From Paludibacterium purpuratum (GTDB lineage Bacteria > Pseudomonadota > Gammaproteobacteria > Burkholderiales > Chromobacteriaceae): DNA of 61,566 nucleotides. Position numbers and translations under genes: made by a program. The notes below the pieces were generated by a model that had not been told where the DNA came from, did no database searches, and was given only the letters and a program-made list of their open reading frames with translations. This document shows, piece after piece, positions 3,153 to 61,367 of this stretch (positions within the stretch are counted from its first letter, which is position 1; every line of letters begins with the position of its first letter). The DNA lies in assembly GCF_004363805.1 (NCBI RefSeq), contig NZ_SNZP01000019.1, positions 1 through 61,566 on the forward strand, given 5' to 3'.

Positions 3153-6100
3153 ATGTCCCTGACCAATAAAACCGAATTGGCTAGTCTGATCTCGGATATT
3201 CAGTCCGTTGCCAAAAGCAAGCTGTCGGCCGTGGAGGCCGAGAAGCATGTGGCCTTTTTTCCGGTCTATTTCGAAGGCGCCGAGCATGGCGATTTAAGCC
3301 GCTTCTCGTCGTTGGATTTATTTGGCGCCGCGATGGCGCACTATGACTTCGGCCGTAAGCGCGCCGTCGGTCAACATAAAATTCGCATCTACAATCCCGA
3401 TTTTGAACGTGACGGCTGGCAGTCGACTCACTCGGTGATCGAGATGGTGACGGATGACATGCCGTTCCTGATCGATTCATTGGCGTTGTTCCTGGGGCGT
3501 AATAATCTGAATCTGCATCTGCTGGTGCACCCGGTTCTGGCGGTCAAGCGCGACTCGGCCGGCAACCTGCAAGACATCCAGCGCACAGGTGACGGCGATG
3601 TACTGCGCGAGTCTTACATTCATGTGCAGATCGACCGCGTCAGCGACCAATCCGTCATGCAAGGCTTACAAGATGAACTTCACCGGGTGATTGCCGATAT
3701 CCGTCTGGTGGTCAGCGATGAGCCGAAGATGCGCGCGGCATTGACCGAAATCGGCAAGGATCTGGCGAAGATCAAAGGTGCGCGTGCGACCGAGGCCAAG
3801 GAAGCCATCGAGTTTCTGCAGTGGACGGCCGACAATCATTTCCTGTTCATGGGGTATTGCGACTACGATCTGGTCAAGCGCGACGGCAAGGACAGCCTGA
3901 AGATCGTCAAGGGATCCGGGCTGGGGATTCTTCAGGATCAGGGCGATAAGGAGTATTCGGCCAGTTTCGAGCAATTGCCGCAGGAGCTGCGCGAATTGGC
4001 GCACTTGCCGCAACTGATTATCCTCAATAAGTCGCAGACTCGCTCCATCATCCATCGCTCGGCTTATGTCGATTTCGTCGGCATCAAGCGCTTCGATGCC
4101 AAGGGCGCGGTGATCGGCGAAAGGCGCTTTCTCGGCCTGTATACCGCACGTGCCTACCAGGTCTCGCCCAAGAACATCCCGATCCTGCGCCGCAAGGTCG
4201 AAAGCGTGATCAAGAGCTGCGATTACGTGGACAACAGCTACAAGGCCAAGACGCTCAACTTCGTGCTGGAGAGCTATCCGCGCGACGAATTGTTCGAGAT
4301 TCCGGCCGAAACCCTGGCGCCGATCGCCGAAGGCATCGTCAATCTGCAAGAGCGGCCGCGCGTGCGGCTGTTCGTGCGTACCGACCGCTACCACCGTTAT
4401 GTCAGTTGCCTAGTCTATGTGCCGCGCGACAGCTTTAGCACAGAAGTGCGGCTGAAGATCGAACGCGTCTTGCTTAACGCCTTCCAGGGTAATTCGACCG
4501 AGTTCAGCGTTCAGATCGGCGACGCTATGTTGGCGCGTGTGCATTACATTATTCGTACCAATGCGGCCAAGTTGCCGACTTTCCGCGAAAGCGATATCGA
4601 AACCGAAATCGAGCGTCTGGTTCGCGGTTGGACCGAGGAGTTGCATCAACAATTAATCGAGGCGCATGGCGAAGAGGAGGGTAATCGCCTGTTCAACGGC
4701 TATAAGCAGGCATTCCCGGTGGCCTACCGCGAAGAATTCGCCGTGCGCAATGCCGTGCTCGATATCCAGCATCTGGAGGGTGTTTGCGCCGAACAACCGC
4801 TGGCGATGAAGTTATATCGGCCGTTCCACCGCAATGCCGAGGATTTCAATCTGAAATTGTTTAGTTTCGGCGAAGCGCTGGGGCTGTCGGCCAGTCTGCC
4901 GATCCTGGAGAACATGGGCGTCAAGGTTCGTGACGAACATCCGTATTGTGTGCGCCGCGCCGACGGCGGCACGATCTGGATCAGCGACTTCGGCCTGGAT
5001 CTGGGTGGCACCTTCGAACAAATGCTGAACGACGAGGTGCAGCAGGATTTTCAGGAATTGTTGAGTCAGGTATTCAGCAAACGCTGCGAAAACGATGGCT
5101 TTAACCGTCTGGCATTGGTAGCCGGCCTCGACTGGCGCGAGATCTCGCTGGTGCGCGCACTGGCCAAATATCTGCGTCAGGCCGGATTGACCTTTAGCCA
5201 GGCCTACATCGAGCAGTGCGTGACCAACTATCCCGAGATCAGTCGCGACCTGGTGCAATTGTTCGCTGTGCGCCTCGATCCGAATACAGCCGACCTGAAG
5301 CTGGCCGCCGAACTGGAAGAGCGCTTGCACGAGCGCTTGGATCTGGTGGCCAATCTGGATGAGGATCGTATCCTCAATGGCCTGTTGACGGTGATTCTGG
5401 CAACGCGCCGCACCAACTTCTGGCAACGCGACGGCGACGGTCTGCCGAAACCCTATATCTCGTTCAAGCTGCAATCCGGCGCGATTCCCTTCCTGCCGCA
5501 ACCGCGGCCGCTGTTCGAAATCTGGGTTTATAGCCCAAGAGTCGAGGGGGTGCATTTGCGCGGTTCGAAGGTGGCGCGCGGCGGCTTGCGCTGGTCCGAT
5601 CGTATGGAAGACTTTCGCACTGAGGTACTTGGGCTGGTCAAGGCGCAGCAGGTCAAAAATTCGGTTATCGTTCCGATGGGCTCGAAGGGCGGTTTCGTTT
5701 GCAAGCAACTGCCGCCGGCCACCGACCGCGAGGCATGGATGGCAGAGGGCATCGCTTGCTATCGCATCTTCATTTCGGCGTTGCTCGATCTGACCGACAA
5801 CCTGGTGAGCGGCGCCATCGTGCCGCCGGTCGATGTGCGTCGTCTGGATGGCGACGACCCCTACCTGGTCGTGGCCGCCGACAAGGGCACGGCCACTTTC
5901 TCCGACATCGCCAATAGCGTGTCGCAGGCCTATGGTTTCTGGTTGGGCGATGCCTTCGCTTCGGGTGGGTCGGCCGGTTACGACCACAAGAAGATGGGCA
6001 TCACTGCGCGCGGCGCCTGGGAGTCGGTCAAGCGTCATTTCCGCCACTTGGGCCTCAACACCCAGGAGCAGGACTTTAGCGTGATCGGCATCGGCGATAT

Positions 6101-43254: not shown

Positions 43255-44973
43255 TTACTTGGCCAGGAAGACGTGCGGGTAGACCGGCTCCCACATTTTA
43301 GCGTCGATCTTGGCCGCCATCTCGGCGTCGGAGATCGGGGCGATCTGGCCGTCGGCGATGGCTTGTTTGCCGACGCCGATGGCTACCGCGCGAGCCACGT
43401 CGCGCAGCTTGCATACCGGTGGCAGCAGGTTGGCTTCGGCATCGGCGCGGGCCGGCGACAGCTCGGCCAGCGATTTGGCTGCCGCCATGAACAGGCGGTC
43501 GGTGATGCGCGGAATCTTCAGCGCCAGCGCGGCGGCACCCACACCCGGGAAGATGTAGGAGTTGTTGGTCTGGTCGACCTTGAACGCGCGGCCATTGCGC
43601 TCGATCGGCGGGAACGGGCTGCCGGTGCCGATGATCACGCGGCCTTCGGTCCAGGCCATGAGATCCGCCGGACGGGCTTCGCTGTTGGCGGTCGGGTTCG
43701 ACAGCGGGAAGATCACCGGGCGTGCCACATGCTTGGCCATTTCGCGCACCATGGCTTCGGTGAACGAGCCGGCTTGGCCGGAGACGCCGATCAGCACGGT
43801 CGGCTTGGCGTTCTTGATGACATCCATCATCGACGGCTGGTCGTTTTCCTTATCCCAGCCTTCGATCGCCGTGGCTTTTTGCACGTAGCGGCGCTGGAAC
43901 GGCTCCAACTTTGCCAGGTCGGTCTTGCCTTCGATCATCAGGCCGGCGCGGCCGACCACGTAGAAGCGGCTTGCCGCTTCCTCGGCACTCAATCCAGCTT
44001 CCACCATGATGTTCTGGATCAGCGAAGCGATACCGCAGCCCGCCGAGCCGCCGCCCAGGATCACTACGCGTTGTTCGGTCACCGGCACGCCGGTGACGTT
44101 GATGGCGGCCAGCAGCGTGCCGCTGGCCACGGCGGCGGTACCTTGTACGTCGTCGTTGAAGGTGCACAGCGTGTCGCGATACTTCTCCAACAGGCGGCTG
44201 GCATTATTCTTGGCGAAGTCTTCCCACTGGAGCAGGACATGCGGCCAGCGTTCCTTGACCGCCGAGACGAACTCGTCGATGAATTCATCGTACTCGGCGC
44301 CGCGGATGCGGGCGTGGCGCCAGCCGATGTACAGCGGGTCGGCCAGCAGTTCCTGGTTGTCGGTGCCGACGTCCAGCGTGATCGGCAGGGTCGTGGCCGG
44401 GTGCAGGCCGCCGCAGGCGGTGTAGAGCGCCATTTTGCCGATAGGGATGCCCATGCCGCCGGCGCCCTGGTCGCCCAGGCCGAGAATGCGCTCGCCGTCG
44501 GTGACGACGATGGCTTCGATATTGTCGAAGCGCGGGTTGGCCAGGATCTTGCGGATCAGGCCCTTATGCGGGTAGCTGAGGAACAGGCCGCGCGGCTTGC
44601 GGTAGATGTGGCTGAAGCGCTGGCAACCGGCGCCGACGGTCGGGGTGTAGATGACCGGCAGCATTTCTTCGATGTGTTGGGTGATGACCGCGTAGTACAG
44701 CGTTTCGTTGCTGTCTTGCAGTTCGCGCAGCATGACATAGCGATCGAAGTCCGTCGGCAGTCCGCGCAGGGCTTCCATGCGGCGCGACACCTGTTCTTCC
44801 AGCGTCATGACATTCGGCGGCAACAGGCCGTGCAGACCCAACTCGGCGCGTTCCTCTTCGGTAAAAGCGGTGCCCTTGTTCAACAGCGGGTCGGCCAGGA
44901 TGTCTTGTTCGGTCAGGCGCGTTTTGACCTTGGCGTCGATCGGCATGTCCACGGGCGGAAATTTGGAACCCAT
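43255..44973 (-). CDS. maeA: NAD-dependent malic enzyme (single-domain SfcA type)
   Basis: A 572-residue oxidative decarboxylase converting malate to pyruvate and CO2 with NAD. The malic N-domain contains LPVIYTPTVGAGCQRFSHIYR and VVTDGERILGLGDQGAGGMGIPIGK. The NAD-binding domain has VVILGGGSAGCGIASLIQ, and FPLSNPTANSEA is typical of the family. Length and architecture match E. coli MaeA, and there is no phosphotransacetylase extension, unlike the maeB gene at 56493. GGAG precedes the start. A small ORF lies directly upstream. Confidence 0.96.
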   Translation of the reverse strand: MGSKFPPVDMPIDAKVKTRLTEQDILADPLLNKGTAFTEEERAELGLHGLLPPNVMTLEEQVSRRMEALRGLPTDFDRYVMLRELQDSNETLYYAVITQHIEEMLPVIYTPTVGAGCQRFSHIYRKPRGLFLSYPHKGLIRKILANPRFDNIEAIVVTDGERILGLGDQGAGGMGIPIGKMALYTACGGLHPATTLPITLDVGTDNQELLADPLYIGWRHARIRGAEYDEFIDEFVSAVKERWPHVLLQWEDFAKNNASRLLEKYRDTLCTFNDDVQGTAAVASGTLLAAINVTGVPVTEQRVVILGGGSAGCGIASLIQNIMVEAGLSAEEAASRFYVVGRAGLMIEGKTDLAKLEPFQRRYVQKATAIEGWDKENDQPSMMDVIKNAKPTVLIGVSGQAGSFTEAMVREMAKHVARPVIFPLSNPTANSEARPADLMAWTEGRVIIGTGSPFPPIERNGRAFKVDQTNNSYIFPGVGAAALALKIPRITDRLFMAAAKSLAELSPARADAEANLLPPVCKLRDVARAVAIGVGKQAIADGQIAPISDAEMAAKIDAKMWEPVYPHVFLAK

Positions 44974-45498: not shown

Positions 45499-45540
45499 AT
45501 GATCAGGATCAAAGAGTTGCCGTAATGGCTGTTCGATAAT
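45499..45540 (+). promoter_or_regulatory. FNR/Anr-dependent class II promoter (candidate) for the hydrogenase operon
   Basis: The box ATGATcaggATCAA (45499-45512) matches the FNR consensus TTGATnnnnATCAA at 9 of 10 fixed positions. GATAAT at 45535-45540 is a one-mismatch -10 box. If its bases are -12 to -7, the start is 45547 and the FNR box is centred exactly at -41.5, the class II activation position. No good -35 hexamer is needed in such promoters. The inference is anaerobic activation. Confidence 0.68.
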
Positions 45541-45558
45541 GAAGTCAGATCGGCGTCG

Positions 45559-45586
45559 ATGTTCGCCAATGTTCGTTAGCGAACAT
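45559..45586. promoter_or_regulatory. ATGTTCG half-site cluster downstream of the hydrogenase start
   Basis: ATGTTCG occurs at 45559-45565 and again at 45569-45575, ten bases apart (one helical turn). The inverted copy CGAACAT follows at 45580-45586 with a TTAG loop. It could be a repressor operator just inside the transcript, or an RNA hairpin in the leader. Confidence 0.45.
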
Positions 45587-45824: not shown

Positions 45825-47021
45825 ATGGTGGCGGCACTGAAGGCGGATATCGAGCGCATCGTGCAGGCGGGCGAGTGGCAACGCGATGACCTGGTGCGCG
45901 TGCTCGGCACGCAAGACGCCGAGGCGTTGGAAACCTTGCGCGCCGCGGCCGAGGCCACCTTGCTCGACAAGGTCGGCGCCGGTGTCAGCCTGCGCGGCCT
46001 GATCGAATTCTCCAATGTCTGTATCAGCGACTGTCTGTACTGCGGCATCCGTAAACATAACCGAAAAGTCGAGCGTTATACCCTGACCGACGATGAGATC
46101 GTCGCCTCGGCGCGCTGGTGCGCCGAAATGGGCTATGGCTCGGTGGTGTTGCAATCGGGCGAGCGGCGCGATGCACAGTTCATCGACCGACTGGCGGCCA
46201 ATGTGCGCGCCATCAAACAAGCCACGCGCTCGGCGCGACAGCCGGACGGTGTCGGCATCACCTTGTGCGTCGGCGAACAGTCGCGCGACGACTATCAGCG
46301 GTTGTTCGACGCCGGCGCTCACCGCTATCTGCTGCGCATGGAAACGTCTTCGCCCGAGTTGTTCGCCCTGATCCACCCGGCACAACAGCGCTTCGAAACC
46401 CGCCTGCAATGTCTGAAGACGCTGCGCGAGGTTGGCTTCCAGGTCGGCACCGGCGTGATGATCGGCATTCCCGGTCAGACATTGACGCAGTTGGCCGATG
46501 ACTTGCTGTTCTTCCGTTCCCTGGATATCGACATGCTCGGCATGGGGCCGTACATCCCGCATGGGGCTGCCGCCATGCCGGCGTCGTTGCCGGTGGCGCC
46601 GGTGGCCGAGCGTTTGGATCTGGCTTTCAAGATGATCGCATTGGCCAGGTTGACGCTGGGCGATGTGAATATCGCCGCCACCACCGCACTGCAGGCGCTC
46701 GACCCGGTCGGTCGAGAGCGCGGCCTGCGTTTCGGCGCCAATGTGATCATGCCGCAGGTCACACCGCTGGCGGTGCGCAAGCAGTACACCTTGTATGACG
46801 GCAAGCCGTGTTTGGAAGACAGCGCCGGCCAATGCGCCACCTGTTTGGAAGGCCGCATCGCTTCGGTCAATCGCTTCATCCGTTATCACCATTGGGGCGA
46901 TTCGGTGCACTTTGCCCGTCGCAACGATTTGCCGGTCGAGTCGCCCCAGGCACCGGCCGTGCCGCGCCATCCGAATGTGCGCACCGACAAGATTATCCAA
47001 CTGCATCTGAAGCAGGATTGA
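45825..47021 (+). CDS. hydE: [FeFe]-hydrogenase maturase HydE (radical SAM)
   Basis: A 398-residue radical SAM enzyme. The [4Fe-4S]/SAM motif C-x3-C-x2-C is C66, C70, C73 (NVCISDCLYCGIR). A second C-terminal site C-x7-C-x2-C (C328, C336, C339; PCLEDSAGQCATC) matches the auxiliary cluster site known in Thermotoga maritima HydE. HydE acts on the HydG-made Fe(CO)2CN-cysteine synthon during assembly of the di-iron subcluster. AAGGAC precedes the start. First gene of the hydrogenase operon. Confidence 0.95.
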   Translation: MVAALKADIERIVQAGEWQRDDLVRVLGTQDAEALETLRAAAEATLLDKVGAGVSLRGLIEFSNVCISDCLYCGIRKHNRKVERYTLTDDEIVASARWCAEMGYGSVVLQSGERRDAQFIDRLAANVRAIKQATRSARQPDGVGITLCVGEQSRDDYQRLFDAGAHRYLLRMETSSPELFALIHPAQQRFETRLQCLKTLREVGFQVGTGVMIGIPGQTLTQLADDLLFFRSLDIDMLGMGPYIPHGAAAMPASLPVAPVAERLDLAFKMIALARLTLGDVNIAATTALQALDPVGRERGLRFGANVIMPQVTPLAVRKQYTLYDGKPCLEDSAGQCATCLEGRIASVNRFIRYHHWGDSVHFARRNDLPVESPQAPAVPRHPNVRTDKIIQLHLKQD

Positions 47022-47098
47022 TGCGGTTGCCAAGAGATTAGTGCATTAAAAAATCGCCCCGGCGTGCCGGGCACAGCAATCCAGGTCTGGAGGAAAAA

Positions 47099-49105
47099 TT
47101 GGAAACTTTGGTGTATGGGGTTTGGGATGGCAAGGTCTACGACTTGCGAAAACAATCCGTTTCTGACGATGCGACCATCCCGGGTTTGACCGGATTCGAG
47201 GCGTTCGCCCCCGGTAATCCGGTTAAGGTTTTTGTCGCCGACCGCGGTTTCATGGTGTTCGACGAACAAGCCAATTTGGCCGGTGCTTTCTGGCAATATC
47301 TGGCGCGCGCCGCCGACGAATCTTGCGGCAAGTGCACGCCGTGCCGGGTCGGCACGGTGGAGCTGCGCGACCAGCTCGACGTTTTGCGGCGCGGCGAGGC
47401 CCCTGCGGGCGGCCTGCATAATCTGCGCATGCTGGCGCATCTGTTGGCCACCACGTCGCTGTGCGGTCTGGGCCAATCCTCCGGACGGGCACTGCTTGAC
47501 GCGTTGACTCATTTCCCGAGCGAATTCACGCCCAAGACGCCCGTGGGCGAGCAAAACGGCGTGATCTACACCACGGCGCCCTGTATCGAGGCCTGTCCGT
47601 CGCGCCTGGATGTGCCGCGTTATATCGACGGTATCCGTGCCGGCCGCAATACCCAGGCGATGGAGGTCATCCTCGAAAAGTACCCGATGGCCGCTTCCTG
47701 TGGTCGTGTGTGCGTGCGTTTCTGCGAATCGGCCTGTCGGCGCCAGGATGCCGAAGGGGCGCTGGCAATCAAGATGCTTAAGCGCTTTGCCTCGGACAAG
47801 GCCTACGACACCGGCAAGCCGTTTTTCGGTAAAGAACGCGTCACCCCGGTGTTGCCTACCAAGAAGAAGGTGGCGGTGGTCGGTGCCGGTCCGGCCGGTG
47901 TGACCTGTGCCTACCAGTTGCTCAAGCGCGGGGTGGATGTCGATGTGATCGACATGCAGCACAAGGCGGGCGGCATGGCCTCGGTGGGGATTCCCAGCTA
48001 CCGCCTGCCCAAGGATGTTCTCAAGGCCGAAACCGAGGGCGCCATCGTCGGCCTGGGCGGCCAGATGGTCTATGGCAAGAAGTTGGGCACCGACTTCGCG
48101 CTCGACGATCTGTTCGCACAGGGCTACGACAGTGTGTTCCTGGGTTACGGCGCCAGCCGCGGCACGCTTTTGGGCGTCGTGGATGAAGATCCCTCGCTCA
48201 AGGGCTATTTCTCCGGCATCGATTTCCTCAAGGCGGTACACGATCGTGTCGAGGACGGTGTGCCGTTCGAAGTGAAGGGCGAAGTGATCGTGGTCGGCGG
48301 CGGTAACGTGGCGATGGACTGTGTACGCTCGGCGCTGCGCTTGGGCGCCAAGAAGGTGCATTTGGTGTATCGCCGAACCGTGGCCGACATGCCGGCCGAT
48401 CACGAGGAAATCGAGGCGTCCGAGAAGGAGGGCGTGGTGTTCCATTGCCTGACCAACCCGTCGCGGCTGATTTCGGATAACGGCAAAGTGGTGGGCGTGG
48501 AAGTGGTCGACATGCGTCAGACCGAAGTGGACGCCCGTGGCCGCCGCAGCGTGGAAGCCGTGGAAGGCTCCGAGCATCGACTGAATTGCGACGTGGTGAT
48601 TGCCGCCATCGGCCAGCAAGTGGACCGTGCGACGCTCGTTGACGCCGACGGTATCGAGACCGATCGCTGGGGATGCGTTGTGGCCGACAAGGATACGATG
48701 GTTACTTCGCGTCCGGGCGTGTTCGCCGGCGGCGATTGTGTGCTCGGGCCACAGACCTTGATCCAGGCGATGGCGCACGGCGAACGTGCCGCTATCAGCA
48801 TCCTGCAGCATCTGCAGGGCCAGCAGCCGTCGGTATTGCCGGAGCAGCGCATGCAGCAGTTGATCGCCGCCAATAAGTTGCTCAACAACGAGTGCCTGCA
48901 GCGCGATGTGATGCCGAAGGGGCGCCAGCCGGTGCCGGAGCAGGAGGTCGAAGACCGCATCGGCAACTTCACCGAGGTGGAGCTCGCGCTGACGCAACGC
49001 GACGCCTATCTGGAAGCCGAGCGCTGCCTGCGTTGTTACCGCCACTATCTGGTGGTGACCGAGAACCCGCTGGCCGAAACCGCCTGCGCCGTCGAATTCG
49101 CATAA
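47099..49105 (+). CDS. NuoF-type iron-sulfur / GltD-like FAD-NAD(P) oxidoreductase fusion (hydrogenase electron partner)
   Basis: A 668-residue protein with a TTG start placed by GGAGG. Residues ~70-140 hold the NuoF C-terminal [4Fe-4S] site (ESCGKCTPCR, C76, C79, C82, and C122), without the preceding NADH/FMN domain. From ~155 it is GltD-like: cluster cysteines C162, C166, C201, C205, C209 and C213, the FAD motif VVGAGPAG near 260, and a second dinucleotide motif VVGGGNVAMD near 398. A C-terminal CLRC pair follows. GltD-type subunits exchange electrons between NAD(P)H and iron-sulfur clusters. Placed next to hydA, it is the probable NAD(P)H link of a glutamate-synthase-linked (HydDB group A2-like) hydrogenase. 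Confidence 0.88.
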   Translation: METLVYGVWDGKVYDLRKQSVSDDATIPGLTGFEAFAPGNPVKVFVADRGFMVFDEQANLAGAFWQYLARAADESCGKCTPCRVGTVELRDQLDVLRRGEAPAGGLHNLRMLAHLLATTSLCGLGQSSGRALLDALTHFPSEFTPKTPVGEQNGVIYTTAPCIEACPSRLDVPRYIDGIRAGRNTQAMEVILEKYPMAASCGRVCVRFCESACRRQDAEGALAIKMLKRFASDKAYDTGKPFFGKERVTPVLPTKKKVAVVGAGPAGVTCAYQLLKRGVDVDVIDMQHKAGGMASVGIPSYRLPKDVLKAETEGAIVGLGGQMVYGKKLGTDFALDDLFAQGYDSVFLGYGASRGTLLGVVDEDPSLKGYFSGIDFLKAVHDRVEDGVPFEVKGEVIVVGGGNVAMDCVRSALRLGAKKVHLVYRRTVADMPADHEEIEASEKEGVVFHCLTNPSRLISDNGKVVGVEVVDMRQTEVDARGRRSVEAVEGSEHRLNCDVVIAAIGQQVDRATLVDADGIETDRWGCVVADKDTMVTSRPGVFAGGDCVLGPQTLIQAMAHGERAAISILQHLQGQQPSVLPEQRMQQLIAANKLLNNECLQRDVMPKGRQPVPEQEVEDRIGNFTEVELALTQRDAYLEAERCLRCYRHYLVVTENPLAETACAVEFA

Positions 49106-49118
49106 TGGTTGAAAGATT

Positions 49119-50876
49119 ATGAAAGCACAGATCAATAACAAGGAATGTTCGTTCGAAGCGCAGGAATCGATCCTGCAGGTGGCGCGCAAGAACGGCGTGT
49201 TCATCCCGACTTTGTGCGAGTTGCATGACCAGGGCCATGCCCCGGGAACCTGTCGCGTCTGTCTGGTGGAAGTGAAGCGCGAAGGTTCGGCAACCTCGGA
49301 GTTCGTCACCGCATGCGATACGCCGATGCAGGACGGTCTGCAAGTGATGACCCGCACCCAGGCGGTGCAGGACATGCGCCGTGTGCAGGTGGAGCTGATC
49401 ATGGCCGAGCACAACCAGGATTGTGCCGCCTGTTCGCGCCACGGCGATTGCGAATTGTTGGACGTGGCCGAAGCGGTCGGCGTGCGCCAGTCGGCTTGTA
49501 CCATCGCCAAGCCTGGTGTGACCTCGGTGTGCGAAGGCACCGACGAGGCGATCCGTTTCGACCCGAGCCGCTGTATCCGTTGTATGCGTTGCGTGGCCAT
49601 GTGCCGCGATATCCAGGGCGTGGACGCATTGAGTCTGGTGGGGCGCGGTGCCGAGACGGCCATCGTGCTTAACGGCGGCGAAGGTCGTCGTCAGTCGGAC
49701 TGCGTGTCTTGCGGCCAGTGCGTGATGGTGTGTCCGACCGGCGCTTTGGCGGAAAACGATCAGACCCAGGCCGTGCTGAATTACCTGATCGATCCGGAAA
49801 TCGTGACGGTGTTCCAGATCGCGCCGGCGATCCGCGTCGGCTTCGGTCAGGAGTTCGGTCTGCCGGCCGGTACCAACGTCGAAGGCCAAGTGGTGTCGGC
49901 ATTGCGTGCCATCGGCGCCGATGTGATTCTCGACACCAATTTCGCCGCCGACCTGGTCATCATGGAAGAGGGCAACGAAGTGCTGGGCCGTGTGCTGGAA
50001 GGCCGCGGCACGACGTTCACCTCCTGTTGTCCGGGCTGGGTGGATTTCGCCGAGAAGCATTTCCCGGGCATCCTGCCGATGGTGTCTTCGACCCGCTCGC
50101 CGCAGCAGTGCCTGGGCTCGCTGGCCAAGACTTACCTGGCCAAGAAGATGGATATCGATGCCAAGCACATCCGTGTGGTATCGATCATGCCCTGTACCGC
50201 CAAGAAACAGGAAGCGGCACGGCCGGAGTTGGCGAAGGACGGCGTGCCGGACGTCGATGTCGTGCTGACCATTCGCGAATTCGCCCGGTTGTTGCGCCGC
50301 GAAGGCGTCAATCTGGCCGAGCTCGAACCTTCGGCTTTCGATGATCCGTTGATGAGCGAGTACACCGGCGCCGGGGTGATTTTCGGTACCACCGGCGGTG
50401 TGATGGAGGCGGCAATCCGTACCTTGTACTTTGTGGCCAACGGCAAGGAGTTGGACGGCATCGAAGTGCACGACGTGCGCGGCTTCGACCGTGTACGCGA
50501 AGCCACCATCGAAGTGGGCGGCCAGGTCGGCACGCTCAACGTGGCGATGGTGCATGGTCTGAAGGGGGCGGCGCAGGTGGCGCAGGCCGTGCTGGACGGT
50601 TCGGTCAAGTATGACTTCATCGAGGTCATGGCCTGCCCGGGCGGTTGTATCGACGGCGGCGGTCATCTACGCAGCAAGAAGGGCTATCTGAAGCATGCCG
50701 AGGCGCGGCGCAAGGGGCTGTATGCCATCGACCGCAAGACCGGCGCGCGCCAGTCGCACAATAACCAGCAGGTGCAGAAGCTGTACCAGGATTTCCTGGG
50801 CGAACCGCTATCGCATGCTTCGCACGATCTGCTGCATACGCATTACCAGGCTAAACCGCGCGAGACCGATGTTTAA
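49119..50876 (+). CDS. hydA: [FeFe] hydrogenase catalytic subunit
   Basis: A 585-residue CpI-like enzyme that reduces protons or oxidises H2. The N-terminal [2Fe-2S] domain has C33, C45, C48 and C66. The His-ligated cluster is H98, C102, C105, C111. Two ferredoxin clusters are at C152-C162 and C195-C205. All H-cluster motifs are intact: L1 TSCCPGW (C303 proton relay, C304 ligand), L2 MPCTAKKQE (C359) and L3 EVMACPGGCIDGGG (C506, C510). A small-subunit-like tail follows. No signal peptide is present, so it is cytoplasmic. It lies 13 bases after its flavoprotein partner. Confidence 0.97.
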   Translation: MKAQINNKECSFEAQESILQVARKNGVFIPTLCELHDQGHAPGTCRVCLVEVKREGSATSEFVTACDTPMQDGLQVMTRTQAVQDMRRVQVELIMAEHNQDCAACSRHGDCELLDVAEAVGVRQSACTIAKPGVTSVCEGTDEAIRFDPSRCIRCMRCVAMCRDIQGVDALSLVGRGAETAIVLNGGEGRRQSDCVSCGQCVMVCPTGALAENDQTQAVLNYLIDPEIVTVFQIAPAIRVGFGQEFGLPAGTNVEGQVVSALRAIGADVILDTNFAADLVIMEEGNEVLGRVLEGRGTTFTSCCPGWVDFAEKHFPGILPMVSSTRSPQQCLGSLAKTYLAKKMDIDAKHIRVVSIMPCTAKKQEAARPELAKDGVPDVDVVLTIREFARLLRREGVNLAELEPSAFDDPLMSEYTGAGVIFGTTGGVMEAAIRTLYFVANGKELDGIEVHDVRGFDRVREATIEVGGQVGTLNVAMVHGLKGAAQVAQAVLDGSVKYDFIEVMACPGGCIDGGGHLRSKKGYLKHAEARRKGLYAIDRKTGARQSHNNQQVQKLYQDFLGEPLSHASHDLLHTHYQAKPRETDV

Positions 50877-50895
50877 GCGCGTGGCGACGTAATGA

Positions 50896-50933
50896 GAGGC
50901 CCGCCCCGTCGCCCGGTCAGGGCGCGGGGCCTC
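50896..50933 (+). other. Hairpin between hydA and hydG
   Basis: The 108-base gap holds a GC-rich inverted repeat: GAGGCC pairs with GGCCTC, and inside it GCCC pairs with GGGC around GGTCA. No T-run follows, so it is more likely an mRNA-stabilising or processing hairpin separating hydA from the maturase genes than a terminator. Confidence 0.5.
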
Positions 50934-50984
50934 GAGGGCCCGGCTGGACGGGGATTCTCGAAGATCATCATATTGGAGTAAAAC

Positions 50985-52388
50985 ATGACGCACATTCACG
51001 ATACCCAGGCAAGTTGGCTCGACCCGGAAGTGGTCGAGAATGCCCTGAAGAACCCCAATCGCGACCCGGCGCACGTCCGTGCGGTGCTGGCCAAGGCCCG
51101 CGAATTGCAGGGGCTGAATTTCGACGATGTGGCGACGCTCGCCTGCATCGATGACGACGCATTGCGTGATGAACTGTATGGCACCGCGCGCTACGTCAAA
51201 GAGGAAATCTACGGCAAGCGCATGGTGTTGTTCGCGCCGCTGTACATTTCCAATGTCTGCGGCAACGAATGCAGCTATTGCGCATTCCGTGCCTCGAACA
51301 AGTCCATCCAGCGCCATGCGTTGGATATGGAGGAGATCAAGCAAGAGGCATTGTGCCTGATCGACCAGGGCCAGAAGCGGGTGCTGCTGGTGGCCGGCGA
51401 GGGCTATTCGGCAGCCAACGGCGGTTTCAACTACGTGCTCGACGCCATCGATGCGGTGTATTCGGTCGAACACAAGAACGGGAATATCCGTCGCTTGAAC
51501 GTCAATGTTGCGCCGCTCACGCTCGAAGAGTTCCAGGCGCTGAAGGCGCGCGAGATCGGCACCTACCAGTTGTTCCAGGAGACCTATCACCGTCCGACCT
51601 ATGCCGAAGTGCATCTGCGCGGCAAAAAGGCGGATTTCGACTGGCGTGCCAGTGCGATGGATCGCGCCATGCAAGCCGGCATCGACGATGTGGGGCTGGG
51701 CGCCTTGTTCGGCCTGTACGATTGGCGTTTCGAACTGATGAGCCTGATGCAGCACATCGCGCATCTGGAGGAACGTTTCGGCGTGGGCGCGCATACCATC
51801 AGTGTGCCGCGTATCGAGCCGGCTGAAGGTTCCGACTTCGCCAGCGCGCCGCCGTATGCCGTGACGGACGAGGACTTCAAGAAGCTGGTCGCCATCTTGC
51901 GTCTGGCCGTGCCGTATACCGGTCTGATCCTGTCTACGCGCGAGTCGGCCGAGATGCGTCGCGAGGCCATCGCGCTCGGTATTTCGCAAATTTCCGCCGG
52001 CAGCCGTACCAATCCGGGCGGTTATGCCGCCGATGCCACGTCGACCGAGCAGTTCCAGTTGGGCGATCACCGTTCGTTGGAGGAGGTTGTGCGCGAATTG
52101 GCCTCGACCGGCTTTATTCCGTCTTTCTGTACCGCCTGCTACCGCATGGGACGCACCGGCAAGGATTTCATGGATCTGGCCAAGCCGGGCTTGATCAAGC
52201 GTAAGTGCGATCCTAACGCGGTGACCACGCTGCAGGAGTACCTGTGCGATTATGCCGAACCGGCCACGCAAGCCGCCGGCGAGAGTGCCATCGTGCAGTC
52301 GCTGGACAAGATGGATCCGAAAACCCGCCGCAACGCCGAGAAGATGCTGAATATGATCCGCAACGGCCGTCGCGACATTTATTGCTGA
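50985..52388 (+). CDS. hydG: [FeFe]-hydrogenase maturase HydG (tyrosine lyase)
   Basis: A 467-residue radical SAM enzyme that cleaves tyrosine to make the CO and CN ligands and releases an Fe(CO)2CN-cysteine complex. The SAM cluster is C92, C96, C99 (NVCGNECSYC). The C-terminal C-x2-C-x22-C motif (C382, C385, C408), which holds the auxiliary five-iron cluster, is exact and distinguishes HydG from ThiH. TTGGAG precedes the start. It lies downstream of hydA, separated by a hairpin-bearing gap. Confidence 0.96.
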   Translation: MTHIHDTQASWLDPEVVENALKNPNRDPAHVRAVLAKARELQGLNFDDVATLACIDDDALRDELYGTARYVKEEIYGKRMVLFAPLYISNVCGNECSYCAFRASNKSIQRHALDMEEIKQEALCLIDQGQKRVLLVAGEGYSAANGGFNYVLDAIDAVYSVEHKNGNIRRLNVNVAPLTLEEFQALKAREIGTYQLFQETYHRPTYAEVHLRGKKADFDWRASAMDRAMQAGIDDVGLGALFGLYDWRFELMSLMQHIAHLEERFGVGAHTISVPRIEPAEGSDFASAPPYAVTDEDFKKLVAILRLAVPYTGLILSTRESAEMRREAIALGISQISAGSRTNPGGYAADATSTEQFQLGDHRSLEEVVRELASTGFIPSFCTACYRMGRTGKDFMDLAKPGLIKRKCDPNAVTTLQEYLCDYAEPATQAAGESAIVQSLDKMDPKTRRNAEKMLNMIRNGRRDIYC

Positions 52389-52395
52389 GACGACC

Positions 52396-53808
<1,413 letters not shown>

Positions 53809-53819
53809 GGAGTGACATC

Positions 53820-55058
53820 ATGCAAGATACGCCCAAGGGACTGCGACTGCATATCGGACTATTCGGCCGGCGCAATGTCGGTAAGTCCTCATTGATGAAC
53901 GCGCTAGTCGGCCAATCGGTGTCTATCGTGTCGGATCTGGCGGGCACCACCACCGACCCGGTGGAAAAAACACTGGAGATGGCGCCCCTGGGGCCGATTG
54001 TGTTTGTCGATACCGCCGGGCTCGACGACGTCGGCGCCGTGGGCGAGATGCGCAAGCAACGTTCGCTGCAGGTGCTGGATCGAGTCGATCTAGGCATCGT
54101 GGTGGCGACGCCCGAGGGGCTCACCGACTACGAGCGCGATGTGATGGCGCTGTTGACCGAGCGCAAGACGCCGTTTTTGCTGGTGTTCAATAAATGCGAT
54201 CTGGGCGCGCCGCCGACCGAGTGCCTGGCCGAGCTCGATCGGGATAAGGTCGTGCATGTGCGGGCCAGCGCGACCGAGGCTCAGGCGCTGGATCAGATCA
54301 AGGAGGCGCTGTTTCACTTGGCGCCGGAAAATCCGGTCGACGAGCCGCGGTTGATCGGCGATTTGCTGTCGCCGGGCGATACGGTGGTGTTGGTGGTGCC
54401 GATCGATCTTGGGGCGCCCAAGGGGCGGTTGATTCTGCCGCAAGTGCAGACGATCCGCGATGTGCTCGACAGCGATGCCAGTTGCGTGGTGGTCAAGGAA
54501 CGCGAATTGGCCGATACGCTTTCGAAGATGACGGTACGGCCGCGCATCGTGGTGTGCGATTCGCAGGTGGTGTTGAAGGCTTCGGCCGATACGCCGCCGG
54601 AAATTCCGCTGACGACCTTCTCGATTCTGATGTCTCGCTTCAAGGGCGATATGATTCGGCTGGCGCACGGTGCGGGTGCGATCAATGCGCTGCGTCCCGG
54701 GGATCGGGTTTTGATCACCGAGTCGTGCTCGCATCATTCGCTGGCCGACGATATCGGCCGGGTGAAAATTCCGCGCTGGCTGCGTCAGTTCGCCGGCGGC
54801 GATCTGCAGACCGACGTCGTTGCCGGAAAAGATTTCCCGGATGATTTGTCGCCGTACGCCTTGGTCGTGCAGTGCGGCGGCTGCATGGTGACGCGCAAGA
54901 TGGTTCTGCACCGGCAGTATCTGGCTGGACGGCAGAATGTGCCGATGACCAATTACGGCATGGCGATCTCGCAGGTACAGGGGGTGCTCGAGCGCACGCT
55001 GGCGTGTTTCCCCGCTGCGCTCGATGCTTTCCGGTCTGGGGCGCGTCGGCCTAATTGA
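53820..55058 (+). CDS. hydF: [FeFe]-hydrogenase maturase HydF (GTPase/scaffold)
   Basis: A 412-residue protein. The N-terminal GTPase has G1 GRRNVGKSS (16-24), the G2 region AGTTTDPV, G3 DTAG (64-67) and G4 NKCD (124-127). After a dimerisation domain, the C-terminal cluster domain has C303-x-H305 (SCSHH) and C352-x2-C355 (QCGGC), the HydF [4Fe-4S] ligand set. HydF assembles the di-iron precursor and delivers it to apo-HydA. AAGGAG precedes the start. Last gene of the operon; its 3' end overlaps the convergent kgtP by 8 bases. Confidence 0.96.
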
Positions 55059-56328
55059 GGTGCGGCGGTTTCCGGGGCAGTCGTAGACTGGCCAGGAAGC
55101 TGACGATCAGCATGGCGGTGACGTACCAGAAGAAAACTTCCTCTCGTCCCGCGGTTTTTAGCCCTAGGGCGACGAATTCCGCCGAACCGCCGAATAAAGC
55201 ATTGGCGATGGCGTAGGAGAGTCCGACGCCCAGCGCCCGTACCTCGACCGGAAAGAGCTCGGCTTTGACGATGCCGGCAATCGAGGTGTAGAAGCTGATG
55301 ATGCCCAGGGCCAGGGTGATAAGACAAAAGGCCAGAAGCGGGCTCGTTATGTGGTGCAGGGCGCTCAGCAAGGGCAGGGTCAGTAGTGCGCCCAGCCCGC
55401 CGAACAGTAGCATGCTGGCGCGGCGACCAATGCGATCCGACAGTGCGCCGAACAGCGGTTGCGCCAACATGTAGACCAGCAGGCAGACGGTCATGATGGT
55501 GCTTGCGGTGCCGATCGGCATGTGCGCGCTATTGACCAGGTATTTCTGCATGTAGGTGGTGAAGGTGTAGAAACTGAGCGAACCGCCAGCGGTAAAGCCG
55601 AGGACGGTGAGGAATGCGCCTTTGTGGTCGCGCAGTAGCACGCGCAGGCTGCCGGCATCCCGGTTGTTGCTAGCGTTGGGCGCTGCGGTTTCCGTCAGGC
55701 TGCGGCGCAGCCAGAGGGACACTAAGGCAGTCAATGCGCCGAGCACGAAGGGAATGCGCCAGCCCCAGCTTTTGAGTGCCGGCTCGCTGAGCAGATGCTG
55801 CAGGATCACGATGATTAGTACGGCCATCAGTTGGCCGCCTATCAATGTGACGTATTGGAAAGAAGAATAAAATCCCCGCCTACCGGCTGCGGCGACCTCG
55901 CTCATATAGGTTGCCGTGGTGCCATATTCCCCACCGACGGATAGTCCCTGCAATAGACGGGCCAGCAGCAGCAAGATCGGTGCCCAAATGCCGATGGTGC
56001 CGTAGCCTGGCAGGCAGGCAATCACCAGCGATCCCATGCACATCATGAGGATTGAGGCGACCAAGGATTTTTTTCGGCCGTGGCGGTCGGCCAGTCTACC
56101 GAATAGCCAGCCGCCGATCGGTCGCATCAGAAAGCCGACGGCGAAGACGCCCGCGGTATTGAGCAATTGGACCGTCGGGTTGGCTGCGGGGAAGAAGGTC
56201 GGGGCGAAGTAGATGGCACAGAAGGCGTAGACATAGAAGTCGAACCATTCGACGAAGTTGCCCGAGGACGCCGAGAGGATGGCCAGGACGCGCTTACGCT
56301 GATCCTGATTGGACTGTATATGATTCAT
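55051..56328 (-). CDS. kgtP: 2-oxoglutarate:H+ symporter (MHS family)
   Basis: A 425-residue major-facilitator transporter with 12 helices. It is very close to E. coli KgtP throughout: [17 protein letters not shown] at the N-terminus, [20 protein letters not shown], the MFS motif [26 protein letters not shown], and [20 protein letters not shown] near the C-terminus. It imports 2-oxoglutarate with protons. It is convergent with hydF and overlaps its last 8 bases. No terminator lies between them. Confidence 0.92.
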
Positions 56329-60496: not shown

Positions 60497-60821
60497 GGTT
60501 TGAAAGTATCGCCCGCTATTAAGGGTAAGGGCGCTCGGCTAGATGAATGAAAGAAATAGCCTACCAGATTCGACGCATCGATTGGTGGTGACATGGGGTT
60601 GACAGTGTCGCGGTGCCGATTGCACACTTTGCGCCGGGTCCGCAGTCCACCCAGACGTCGCCTGTCCCTTTCGGGACAACGCTGAACCTGCCGGCAAACC
60701 AAAACGATGCATTCCTGCACTCTCAATGCATGAATGCCGATGCGACCAATCTTTCGTGCCGCATTGGAAGGGCGACTACCAATTCCCATTTTATTAGGGG
60801 AGGCGCGCAGGAGGTGTCATC
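60497..60821. other. Intergenic region between nadB and the DUF2087 gene
   Basis: These 325 bases separate divergent genes and must hold both promoters. I see no convincing gene. A short TGTCCC / GGGACA stem lies at 60663-60678. A TTGACA at 60599-60604 has no good -10 box at the right distance. The end of the region carries GGAGG before the GTG start. Confidence 0.4.
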
Positions 60822-61367
60822 GTGACCCGTGCTGTTTTTCGTTTTCATGCAGACGATATTTCTCGTCTCTCTCGTTCCCTTTGTCAGCAAATTGCCTCGC
60901 TAGGCGATGTGCCTGGTCATCAGGCCATGTTGAATATGCTGGCGCGCGCAGTTGGGTTTTCCAATTACCAAAGTTGGCGTGCGACGCAGGAGTCGGTTCC
61001 GGCTGTGGCTGAGCCGGCCCGGGCTGAGCTGGGTACTTCGGCTGCGCATAAAGCCGTGGCGCGACTAGTGCGCTACTACGACCGCGAGGGACGGCTGACG
61101 CATTGGCCGCGTAAGCGGTCGTGGCAGGTGCCTTGTCTTTGGTTGATCGCCGAACACATACCCATTGGCGCCGTATTATCGGAGCCGCAAGTCAATGCCT
61201 TGATTTCGGCTCGTCATACTTTTGGCGACTATGCGCTCATCCGACGAGATCTGGTGATGCTAGGCGCGCTCGGACGGACGCCGGATGGTCGTGAGTACTG
61301 GCGCAATCCGCAGGCGGCGCCGGAAGAGGTCGGGGTGTTGCAGCGGGCTTTGGCCGAAGCGCGTTAA
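60822..61367 (+). CDS. DUF2087-domain protein
   Basis: A 181-residue protein with a GTG start placed by GGAGG seven bases upstream. The C-terminal half (about 80-165) matches the DUF2087 pattern: LTHWPRKRSWQVPCLWLIAEH, LSEPQVNALISARHTFGDYALIRRDLVMLGAL, then REYWRNP. This domain looks like a small winged-helix fold. The N-terminal region DISRLSRSLCQQI...LNMLARAVGFSNYQSW is a short helical module seen in related proteins. Function is unknown; a DNA-binding regulator is possible. It sits just upstream of the rRNA operon promoter. Confidence 0.82.
   Translation: MTRAVFRFHADDISRLSRSLCQQIASLGDVPGHQAMLNMLARAVGFSNYQSWRATQESVPAVAEPARAELGTSAAHKAVARLVRYYDREGRLTHWPRKRSWQVPCLWLIAEHIPIGAVLSEPQVNALISARHTFGDYALIRRDLVMLGALGRTPDGREYWRNPQAAPEEVGVLQRALAEAR

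What the first reader, a model, noticed from the sequence alone, without database searches (positions are those of the whole stretch)
45825..55058. Complete, self-contained [FeFe]-hydrogenase operon in a probable betaproteobacterium
The six genes hydE, a flavoprotein, hydA, hydG, aspA and hydF are colinear with gaps of 7 to 108 bases. All H-cluster ligands in HydA (C304, C359, C506, C510) and the cluster motifs of HydE, HydF and HydG are intact, so the system looks functional. [FeFe] hydrogenases are common in Firmicutes, Bacteroidetes and some Delta- and Gammaproteobacteria but are rare in Betaproteobacteria. Base composition looks like the neighbours, so any transfer would be old.
Basis: partly seen in the sequence, partly recalled or inferred. 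Interest (0 to 1): 0.85.

Follow-up and report, generated by a model that had tools for sequence, protein, structure and literature searches.

The report
NADPH-linked [FeFe]-hydrogenase operon in Paludibacterium
A betaproteobacterium of the genus Paludibacterium carries a complete set of genes to build an iron-only hydrogen-making enzyme, which is uncommon but not unknown in its order, and the enzyme's partner protein looks built to feed it directly from NADPH.

Summary
In detail: six colinear, intact genes hydE, flavoprotein, hydA, hydG, aspA, hydF at 45825-55058, with the claimed HydA ligands at the stated numbers. The genome's closest named loci are Paludibacterium, Betaproteobacteria. The trait is uncommon: HydF exceeds its cut-off in 12 of 399 genomes sampled from the order and 4 of 61 of the family, all in this genus. 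It is neither alone nor new in kind: the genome has a second flavoprotein-hydA pair and a formate-hydrogenlyase-type [NiFe] cluster, and aspA beside hydF is a published pattern, AspA supplying ammonium for the H-cluster bridge (PMC11736057). The useful result is the flavoprotein: a GltD/NfnL-type NADPH-FAD module with only the terminal Fe-S domain of NuoF, no FMN domain, and next to its FAD the lysine of non-bifurcating StnC, not the glutamate of bifurcating NfnL. I read it as a two-subunit, non-bifurcating NADPH:H2 oxidoreductase, like HydDB's uncharacterised group A2 by its partner. Within the genus, hydA and pyruvate:ferredoxin oxidoreductase occur in the same 4 of 6 genomes.

The parts
45825..47021 (+). 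hydE, radical SAM maturase of the H-cluster
   Evidence: TIGR03956 323.6 bits, cut-off 254.6; CX3CX2C at residues 66-73
47099..49105 (+). electron-input flavoprotein: NuoF C-terminal [4Fe-4S] domain (residues 65-144) joined to a GltD/NfnL/StnC-like NADPH-FAD module (about 159-646); no NuoF FMN domain
   Evidence: PF10589, PF14691, PF07992; NuoF model matched only at 313-407 of 410; best PDB matches 9n5u_A (NfnA), 9bov_A, 4ylf_B (NfnL), 8oh5_C (StnC)
49119..50876 (+). hydA (HydA1), catalytic subunit: N-terminal [2Fe-2S], His-Cys [4Fe-4S], two ferredoxin-type [4Fe-4S], H-cluster domain
   Evidence: TIGR02512 488.1 bits, cut-off 405.95; domains; C304, C359, C506, C510
50985..52388 (+). hydG, radical SAM tyrosine lyase (CO/CN source)
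   Evidence: TIGR03955 516.8 bits, cut-off 312.15; both cluster motifs
52396..53808 (+). aspA, aspartate ammonia-lyase (proposed ammonium source for the bridging ligand)
   Evidence: NF008909 637.5 bits, cut-off 510; equivalog TIGR00839 520.6, below its cut-off 681.2; GSSIMPGKVN loop
53820..55058 (+). hydF, GTPase scaffold
   Evidence: TIGR03918 536.0 bits, cut-off 325.55; P-loop and CXH...CXXC
45499..45512 (+). possible FNR-type site, ATGATCAGGATCAA, one mismatch to the consensus (consensus recalled)
   Evidence: 2 matches in the window, 1.17 expected by chance; at 311-326 bases before hydE also in G002 (same letters) and G003 (2 mismatches); function untested
45530..45585 (.). possible operator: TGTTCG half-sites at 45530, 45560, 45570 and CGAACA at 45580, in 10-base phase
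   Evidence: densest cluster of this hexamer in the window; the block aligns in two congeners, no copy in 500 bases before hydE of G001; function untested
43255..44973 (-). malic enzyme gene, divergent neighbour
   Evidence: NF010052 794.7 bits; a malic enzyme also abuts the hyd locus in L020 and L038 but is not grouped with it in a tree
55051..56328 (-). metabolite/H+ symporter (MFS), converging neighbour overlapping the hydF end by 8 bases
   Evidence: NF007710 705.2 bits, TIGR00883 462.4

Best explanation
The operon encodes a cytoplasmic, two-subunit, non-bifurcating NADPH:H2 oxidoreductase of [FeFe] group A, plus its H-cluster assembly line. Proposed path: NADPH gives a hydride to FAD in the GltD-like part of the flavoprotein. 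Electrons pass one at a time through a FAD-proximal [4Fe-4S] cluster (three Cys plus Lys228), a second [4Fe-4S] cluster, and the NuoF-type [4Fe-4S] cluster of the N-terminal domain to the Fe-S chain of HydA and the H-cluster, where protons are reduced. HydG and HydE make the CO/CN-iron parts and HydF assembles them. AspA releases ammonium from aspartate for the bridging amine; the fumarate left over can go on to malate. The same maturases probably serve the second HydA. Physiologically it is a fermentative electron valve beside pyruvate:ferredoxin oxidoreductase. Shown: gene identities, intact ligands, domain make-up, lysine in place of glutamate, purifying selection, co-distribution. Inferred: cofactor specificity, direction, absence of bifurcation, use of the ammonium, sharing of maturases.
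For: All six families with intact motifs. The flavoprotein's best solved relatives are 9n5u_A (deposited as NfnA), 9bov_A, 4ylf_B (NfnL) and 8oh5_C (StnC, which binds NADPH). In StnC the FAD-proximal cluster uses K170 and the FAD does not bifurcate, while bifurcating NfnB has Glu there (PMC10482914, section 8 and passages). The alignments place K170 on window K228 and R239 on R302, while 4ylf_B and 5jca_L have E. K228, R302, YRR 424-426 and 12 Cys of the Fe-S domains are invariant in 14 of 14 sequences, window included. In a wider set of 19 rows, 18 have Lys; the exception, L089, is a separate GltD-like protein with E. The NuoF FMN domain is missing, and none of the six proteins matches a NuoE/HydC family. 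The NuoF cluster kept is, by my reading, the B1 cluster that carries electrons from 'BfuB' to 'BfuA' in non-bifurcating homologs (PMC9304861, passages). NADPH at about -370 mV in anaerobes can reduce protons at low H2 (-340 mV at 250 Pa) (PMC6288185, passages). PFOR is over its cut-off in the same 4 of 6 genomes that have HydA. AspA with aspartate gave the bridging N in vitro (PMC11736057, abstract and passages); gcvH is in 6 of 6 genomes.
Against: I found no biochemistry for this protein or a close homolog (searches). NADPH rather than NADH rests on family resemblance and on a YRR motif whose role I recall and did not test; in the 19-row set L066 keeps the Lys but lacks R302 and YRR. V172 stands where StnC has C114, the second unusual ligand, so the cluster is not identical. 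The structure model was poor (mean pLDDT 59.8) and could not place K228. HydDB suggests the opposite direction for this group, H2 oxidation to NAD reduction. PFOR co-occurrence rests on six related genomes and may be one event. The nearest solved malic enzymes to the neighbour include both NAD- and NADP-linked ones, so it does not settle the cofactor.
Confidence: 0.62

Rival explanations
1. It is an electron-bifurcating or confurcating hydrogenase: NADPH and reduced ferredoxin are used together (or H2 is split to both), with ferredoxin docking on HydA's own Fe-S domains or on the flavoprotein.
For: The nearest NCBIfam model to HydA is NF040763, NADH-dependent group A6 (699.8 bits, below its cut-off 765), and the nearest solved chains, 8a6t_A and 7q4v_A, are HydA of HydABC enzymes. 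PFOR, a ferredoxin reducer, is co-distributed.
Against: No FMN domain of NuoF, no NuoE/HydC-like protein among the six; the FAD site has the StnC-type lysine, not the NfnL-type glutamate.
Confidence: 0.15
2. HydA works mainly as a ferredoxin-dependent (A1-like) hydrogenase fed by PFOR, and the flavoprotein is an auxiliary NADPH:ferredoxin-type reductase.
For: PFOR is over its cut-off in the same 4 of 6 genomes; HydA has the full N-terminal ferredoxin-like domains.
Against: The flavoprotein gene lies directly before hydA, same strand, in 16 of 16 loci where I had a flavoprotein of 600 residues or more, both Paludibacterium loci included, as expected of a fixed subunit. Shorter GltD-like hits differ (L066 other strand, L089 separate protein).
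Confidence: 0.13
3. It runs as an uptake enzyme that makes NAD(P)H from H2 for biosynthesis, the HydDB proposal for group A2.
For: HydDB: 'May couple H2 oxidation to NAD reduction, generating reductant for glutamate synthase' (PMC5037454, passages). A NADPH:H2 couple is close to reversible (inference).
Against: I recognised no glutamate synthase large subunit among the ORFs listed beside either locus; only some were profiled, among them the 1603-residue ORF at 3153, a glutamate dehydrogenase. The PFOR pattern points to fermentation.
Confidence: 0.2

Closest known systems
hyd loci of a Paludibacterium MAG (L018), Paludibacterium yongneupense DSM 18731 (L019), Uliginosibacterium gangwonense (L020), Rhodocyclaceae UBA1310 (L038)
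   Same: the same six genes; HydA 91, 76, 62 and 62% identical in that order
   Different: hydE is last in L020 and L038, first in Paludibacterium; other neighbours in P. yongneupense
HydDB [FeFe] group A2, glutamate synthase-linked (putative)
   Same: GltD-type partner of a group A HydA
   Different: here the partner is upstream of hydA and carries a NuoF-type Fe-S domain; HydDB's rule looks at the protein immediately downstream, which is HydG
StnABC / Nfn-Bfu transhydrogenases (StnC, NfnA)
   Same: GltD-like NADPH-FAD module with lysine at the FAD-proximal cluster
   Different: there it is fused to a NuoG-like domain and feeds a bifurcating HydBC-like core; here it has a NuoF Fe-S domain and stands beside HydA
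Electron-bifurcating HydABC (group A3)
   Same: HydA subunit, 8a6t_A E 4.1e-141
   Different: no FMN domain, no HydC, GltD module instead
aspA-containing hyd operons (Pagnier et al. 2024, PMC11736057)
   Same: aspA immediately beside hydF
   Different: the organism and the gltD-linked hydA; whether the paper's networks included such loci I did not see

Membership tests
[FeFe]-hydrogenase, group A | HydA profile score and four H-cluster cysteines | tested here: met
   TIGR02512 488.1 bits over 405.95; C304, C359, C506, C510
[FeFe]-hydrogenase, group A | maturases HydE, HydF, HydG present | tested here: met
   all over equivalog cut-offs
[FeFe]-hydrogenase, group A | H2 production or oxidation | not testable with these tools
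   needs enzyme assay
HydDB group A2 | GltD-type partner subunit encoded beside hydA | tested here: met
   GltD-like flavoprotein gene 13 bases upstream
HydDB group A2 | HydDB rule: GltD-type, not NuoF, domain in the protein immediately downstream | tested here: not met
   the downstream protein is HydG; by the letter of the rule it would be A1. I say 'A2-like by its partner', not a formal A2. HydDB itself was not run
Group A3 bifurcating HydABC | NuoF-like subunit with FMN domain and NuoE-like subunit | tested here: not met
   only NuoF positions 313-407 of 410 matched; no NuoE-like protein among the six
NCBIfam group A6 (NF040763) | score over 765 bits | tested here: not met
   699.8 bits
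NfnL/NfnB (bifurcating GltD fold) | glutamate ligand at the FAD-proximal cluster | tested here: not met
   K228 aligned with E of 4ylf_B and 5jca_L
StnC-type GltD module | lysine at the proximal cluster and conserved R239 | tested here: met
   K228, R302
StnC-type GltD module | C114 near the proximal cluster; fused NuoG domain | tested here: not met
   V172 at that column; NuoF Fe-S domain instead. Works like, but is not, a StnC
aspA-hyd operon (PMC11736057) | aspA adjacent to hydF | tested here: met
   11-base gap
aspA-hyd operon (PMC11736057) | second ammonia-lyase (sdaA or ilvA) in the genome | not tested
   no search made; gcvH of the glycine cleavage system is in 6 of 6 genus genomes

The most novel reading that the evidence does not exclude
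A minimal, non-bifurcating NADPH hydrogenase assembled from three known parts: a StnC-like NADPH-FAD module with a lysine-ligated cluster, an orphan NuoF terminal Fe-S domain as connector, and a HydA. It is tied to an aspartate route: AspA gives ammonium for the H-cluster and fumarate, and a malic enzyme, found beside the hyd locus in two lineages but not the same malic enzyme in both, turns the resulting malate into pyruvate and NAD(P)H for H2 and PFOR.
Probability: 0.25. Interest if true: 0.62.

Novelty: new member of a known kind. Interest (0 to 1): 0.42.

Why it matters
HydDB lists the GltD-linked [FeFe] group as of undetermined role. The sequences here give a concrete prediction (NADPH in, H2 out, no ferredoxin, lysine ligand) in a facultatively anaerobic genus with a cultured type strain. 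A direct NADPH-to-H2 enzyme would be useful for cofactor recycling. The finding also corrects 'betaproteobacterial oddity' to 'a small betaproteobacterial clade with two paralogs in this genus'.

Tried and rejected
Recent acquisition: not shown. GC matches but codon usage of three genes does not; HydA sits in a betaproteobacterial clade. Expression bias could also cause the codon signal. In one search the control segments are part of the reference pool, which favours the controls; one search is leave-one-out.

Plasmid carriage: tblastn of HydA (E 1e-60) against 72,556 plasmid records found 15, all under 60% identity, none of a betaproteobacterial genus.

Introns or insertions in the UBA1310 genes: the gaps are runs of N.

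Malic enzyme co-inherited with the operon: rejected; holding the hyd-adjacent malic enzymes (with the two G001 copies) as one clade lowers the log-likelihood by 126.7, p-AU 4.3e-75. The group was named after the adjacency was seen.

FNR site: my first scan cut the window's upstream stretch short and missed it; searches find a one-mismatch site at 45499. Of 8 upstream stretches of 600 bases (hydE and gltD2 of four species) 8 have a site with at most 2 mismatches, 4 one with at most 1. In the whole window 2 such sites (at most 1 mismatch) stand against 1.17 expected. Suggestive only.

Sigma-70 scan: 1 promoter-like site against 2.8 in shuffles; 12 terminator-like against 8.9.

AlphaFold model of the flavoprotein: mean pLDDT 59.8, pTM 0.47, 8 sequences; not searched against structures.

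Paper searches and look-ups of little use. 'Paludibacterium' with 'hydrogenase' gave 0 papers in this library. No search was made on malic enzyme with hyd.

Full report
1. The observation. Six ORFs in one direction at 45825-55058 are hydE, a 668-residue flavoprotein, hydA, hydG, aspA and hydF. HydE, HydA, HydG, HydF and AspA each pass a curated NCBIfam cut-off; AspA passes the subfamily model but not the stricter equivalog one; the flavoprotein passes none of the 25 NCBIfam models shown (of 71 matched) but three or more Pfam cut-offs. Against two congeners dN/dS is 0.042-0.135 over the six genes.

2. The organism. The closest named loci are a Paludibacterium MAG (HydA 91%) and P. yongneupense DSM 18731 (76%), then Uliginosibacterium gangwonense and Rhodocyclaceae UBA1310 (62% each), then Krumholzibacteriia at 52% (best 80 of 129 kept, one scan). 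NCBI places Paludibacterium in Betaproteobacteria, Neisseriales. Members are described as facultative anaerobes (PMC12943652, passages).

3. How rare. TIGR02512 is over its cut-off in 5 of 61 relatives: 4 of the 6 genus genomes, 0 of 31 others of the family, 1 of 24 others of the order (weaker matches in the other 56 genomes are below the cut-off). HydF is over its cut-off in 4 of 6 genus genomes, 4 of 61 of the family, all in this genus, 12 of 399 sampled from the order, spread over four families, and 4 of 369 sampled from the class. So it is rare, but not a unique case in its order. In the order and class surveys only 4 candidates of the first look were scored per genome.

4. A second hydrogenase of the same kind. 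The own genome has a second gltD-hydA pair on contig 15 (HydA2 60% identical to HydA1), flanked on one side by a FUSC-type transporter and an AhpF-like reductase. The contig ends 215 bases after hydA2, so maturases beyond it cannot be excluded there; but none of the six-gene set other than gltD and hydA is found within about 7-9 kb of the pair in G001 and G003. The pair exists in G001, G002 and G003 too. The genome has one HydF, so the window's maturases probably serve both; HydE and HydG were not counted genome-wide. A [NiFe] cluster of formate-hydrogenlyase type also exists: large subunit with RVCGIC and DPCYSC motifs, HycI and HycH; the motif and group labels are recalled.

5. Trees. In the HydA tree (68 rows, quick method) the betaproteobacterial gltD-linked enzymes other than that of G055 form one clade of 13 rows (12 genes), SH-aLRT 100; HydA1 of Paludibacterium with G167/G294 of another family is supported at 95; HydA2 forms its own clade (100) whose link to Uliginosibacterium/UBA1310 is weaker (83). 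Both paralogs lie inside the betaproteobacterial clade. The set was drawn by similarity to the window protein and thinned. G167/G294 have no aspA and a HydF only 57% identical although HydG is 77% identical, so hydF seems to have been exchanged on its own there.

6. Position. A nadB-like gene, maeB and a 109-residue ORF (PhaM-like by recall; no Pfam match) are neighbours in G001, G004 and G005; in G000, G002 and G003 the hyd locus stands behind maeB and that ORF is not in the stretches searched. In G001 the operon lies elsewhere, 3.4 kb from gcvTHP. Unrooted maeB and nadB trees split {G000, G002, G003} from {G001, (G004, G005)}. Whether the operon was lost in G004/G005, gained twice or moved cannot be told without a root.

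7. What the flavoprotein is. Residues 65-144 match the terminal Fe-S domain of NuoF, 159-238 the DPD-type cluster domain, and 256-561 a pyridine-nucleotide oxidoreductase. NuoF is matched only at 313-407 of 410, so its FMN and NADH sites are absent. In StnC the GltD-like FAD does not bifurcate, and its proximal cluster has K170, where NfnB has a glutamate. The alignments put K170 on K228 and R239 on R302 of the window protein. Both are invariant in 14 of 14 sequences, with YRR and 12 Fe-S Cys. In a wider set of 19 rows, 18 have K and one, a separate GltD-like protein near an Elusimicrobiaceae hydA, has E; one other row, L066, lacks R302 and YRR. StnC's C114 is V172 here. The NuoF domain kept should hold the cluster that PMC9304861 calls B1 and that links the NuoF-like to the next subunit (passages; the equation with B1 is mine).

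8. Mechanism. The simplest reading is NADPH -> FAD -> two [4Fe-4S] -> NuoF-type [4Fe-4S] -> HydA -> H2, without bifurcation. Thermodynamically this can work at low H2: NADP/NADPH about -370 mV in anaerobes against -340 mV for H2 at 250 Pa. NADPH specificity is inferred. PFOR is over its cut-off in exactly G000-G003 and has no match at E 1e-30 in G004 and G005, the same 4 of 6 as HydA; the malic enzyme family of the neighbour has the same 4 of 6 pattern. With six related genomes this may be one event.

9. aspA and the malic enzyme. AspA beside hydF is known: aspartate plus AspA supplied the bridging N in vitro, and aspA is almost always close to hydF (PMC11736057, abstract and passages). The own genome has two further matches to the AspA model, one over its cut-off, so AspA activity does not depend on this copy alone. 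A malic enzyme abuts the locus in the window (divergent), in Uliginosibacterium and in UBA1310 (before gltD, same strand); 3 of 80 loci have one, all aspA-bearing, though loci differ in length, and P. yongneupense has its copies on other contigs. The lineages used different malic enzymes. This suggests a route aspartate -> fumarate -> malate -> pyruvate + NAD(P)H, but adjacency by chance is not excluded.

10. Regulation. An FNR-like site at 45499 and a phased hexamer array at 45530-45585 lie upstream of hydE; both are leads only.

11. Verdict. A true, intact, uncommon operon; a new member of a known kind; the useful part is the testable NADPH/lysine prediction for an uncharacterised group.

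Noticed in passing
window 45530-45585: TGTTCG/CGAACA half-sites in 10-base phase upstream of hydE, the densest cluster of this hexamer in the window (5 in 330 bases, 68 in the whole window); block aligned in G002 and G003, absent in G001.
   Followed up: partly
window 45499-45512: FNR-like ATGATCAGGATCAA 326 bases before hydE, also in G002; G001 has an exact TTGATATAAATCAA 597 bases before its hydE; two-mismatch sites about 145 bases before gltD2 in G000, G002, G003 and a one-mismatch site in G001.
   Followed up: partly
L164 4428-12154 (G001:C2): In P. yongneupense the hyd operon lies 3.4 kb from gcvTHP, whose H-protein carries the methylamine used for the H-cluster bridge (PMC11736057), with two BLUF photoreceptor genes between.
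   Followed up: partly
L137, L138 (G167, G294): hydE-gltD-hydA-hydG-hydF without aspA, HydG 77% but HydF 57% identical to the window's: hydF seems replaced where aspA is absent.
   Followed up: partly
window 45825-55058: Codon usage of hydA, aspA and hydF lies outside 20 control genes and length-matched segments (hydF: GAT 0.76 vs 0.37, CGG 0.43 vs 0.11), though GC agrees.
   Followed up: partly
window 60636-60693: Rfam COG3860 cis-regulatory RNA, 54.5 bits, before the ORF at 60822.
   Followed up: no
L161 (G000:C7:33000-47000): Formate-hydrogenlyase-type [NiFe] hydrogenase cluster in the same genome.
   Followed up: partly
window 50877-50984: 108-base GC-rich spacer between hydA and hydG; only patches are conserved in congeners.
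   Followed up: no
G002:C28:13668-15257: One congener has a full-length [NiFe] large subunit match (784 bits); the window's genome has only the partial match on C7 at E 1e-10.
   Followed up: no
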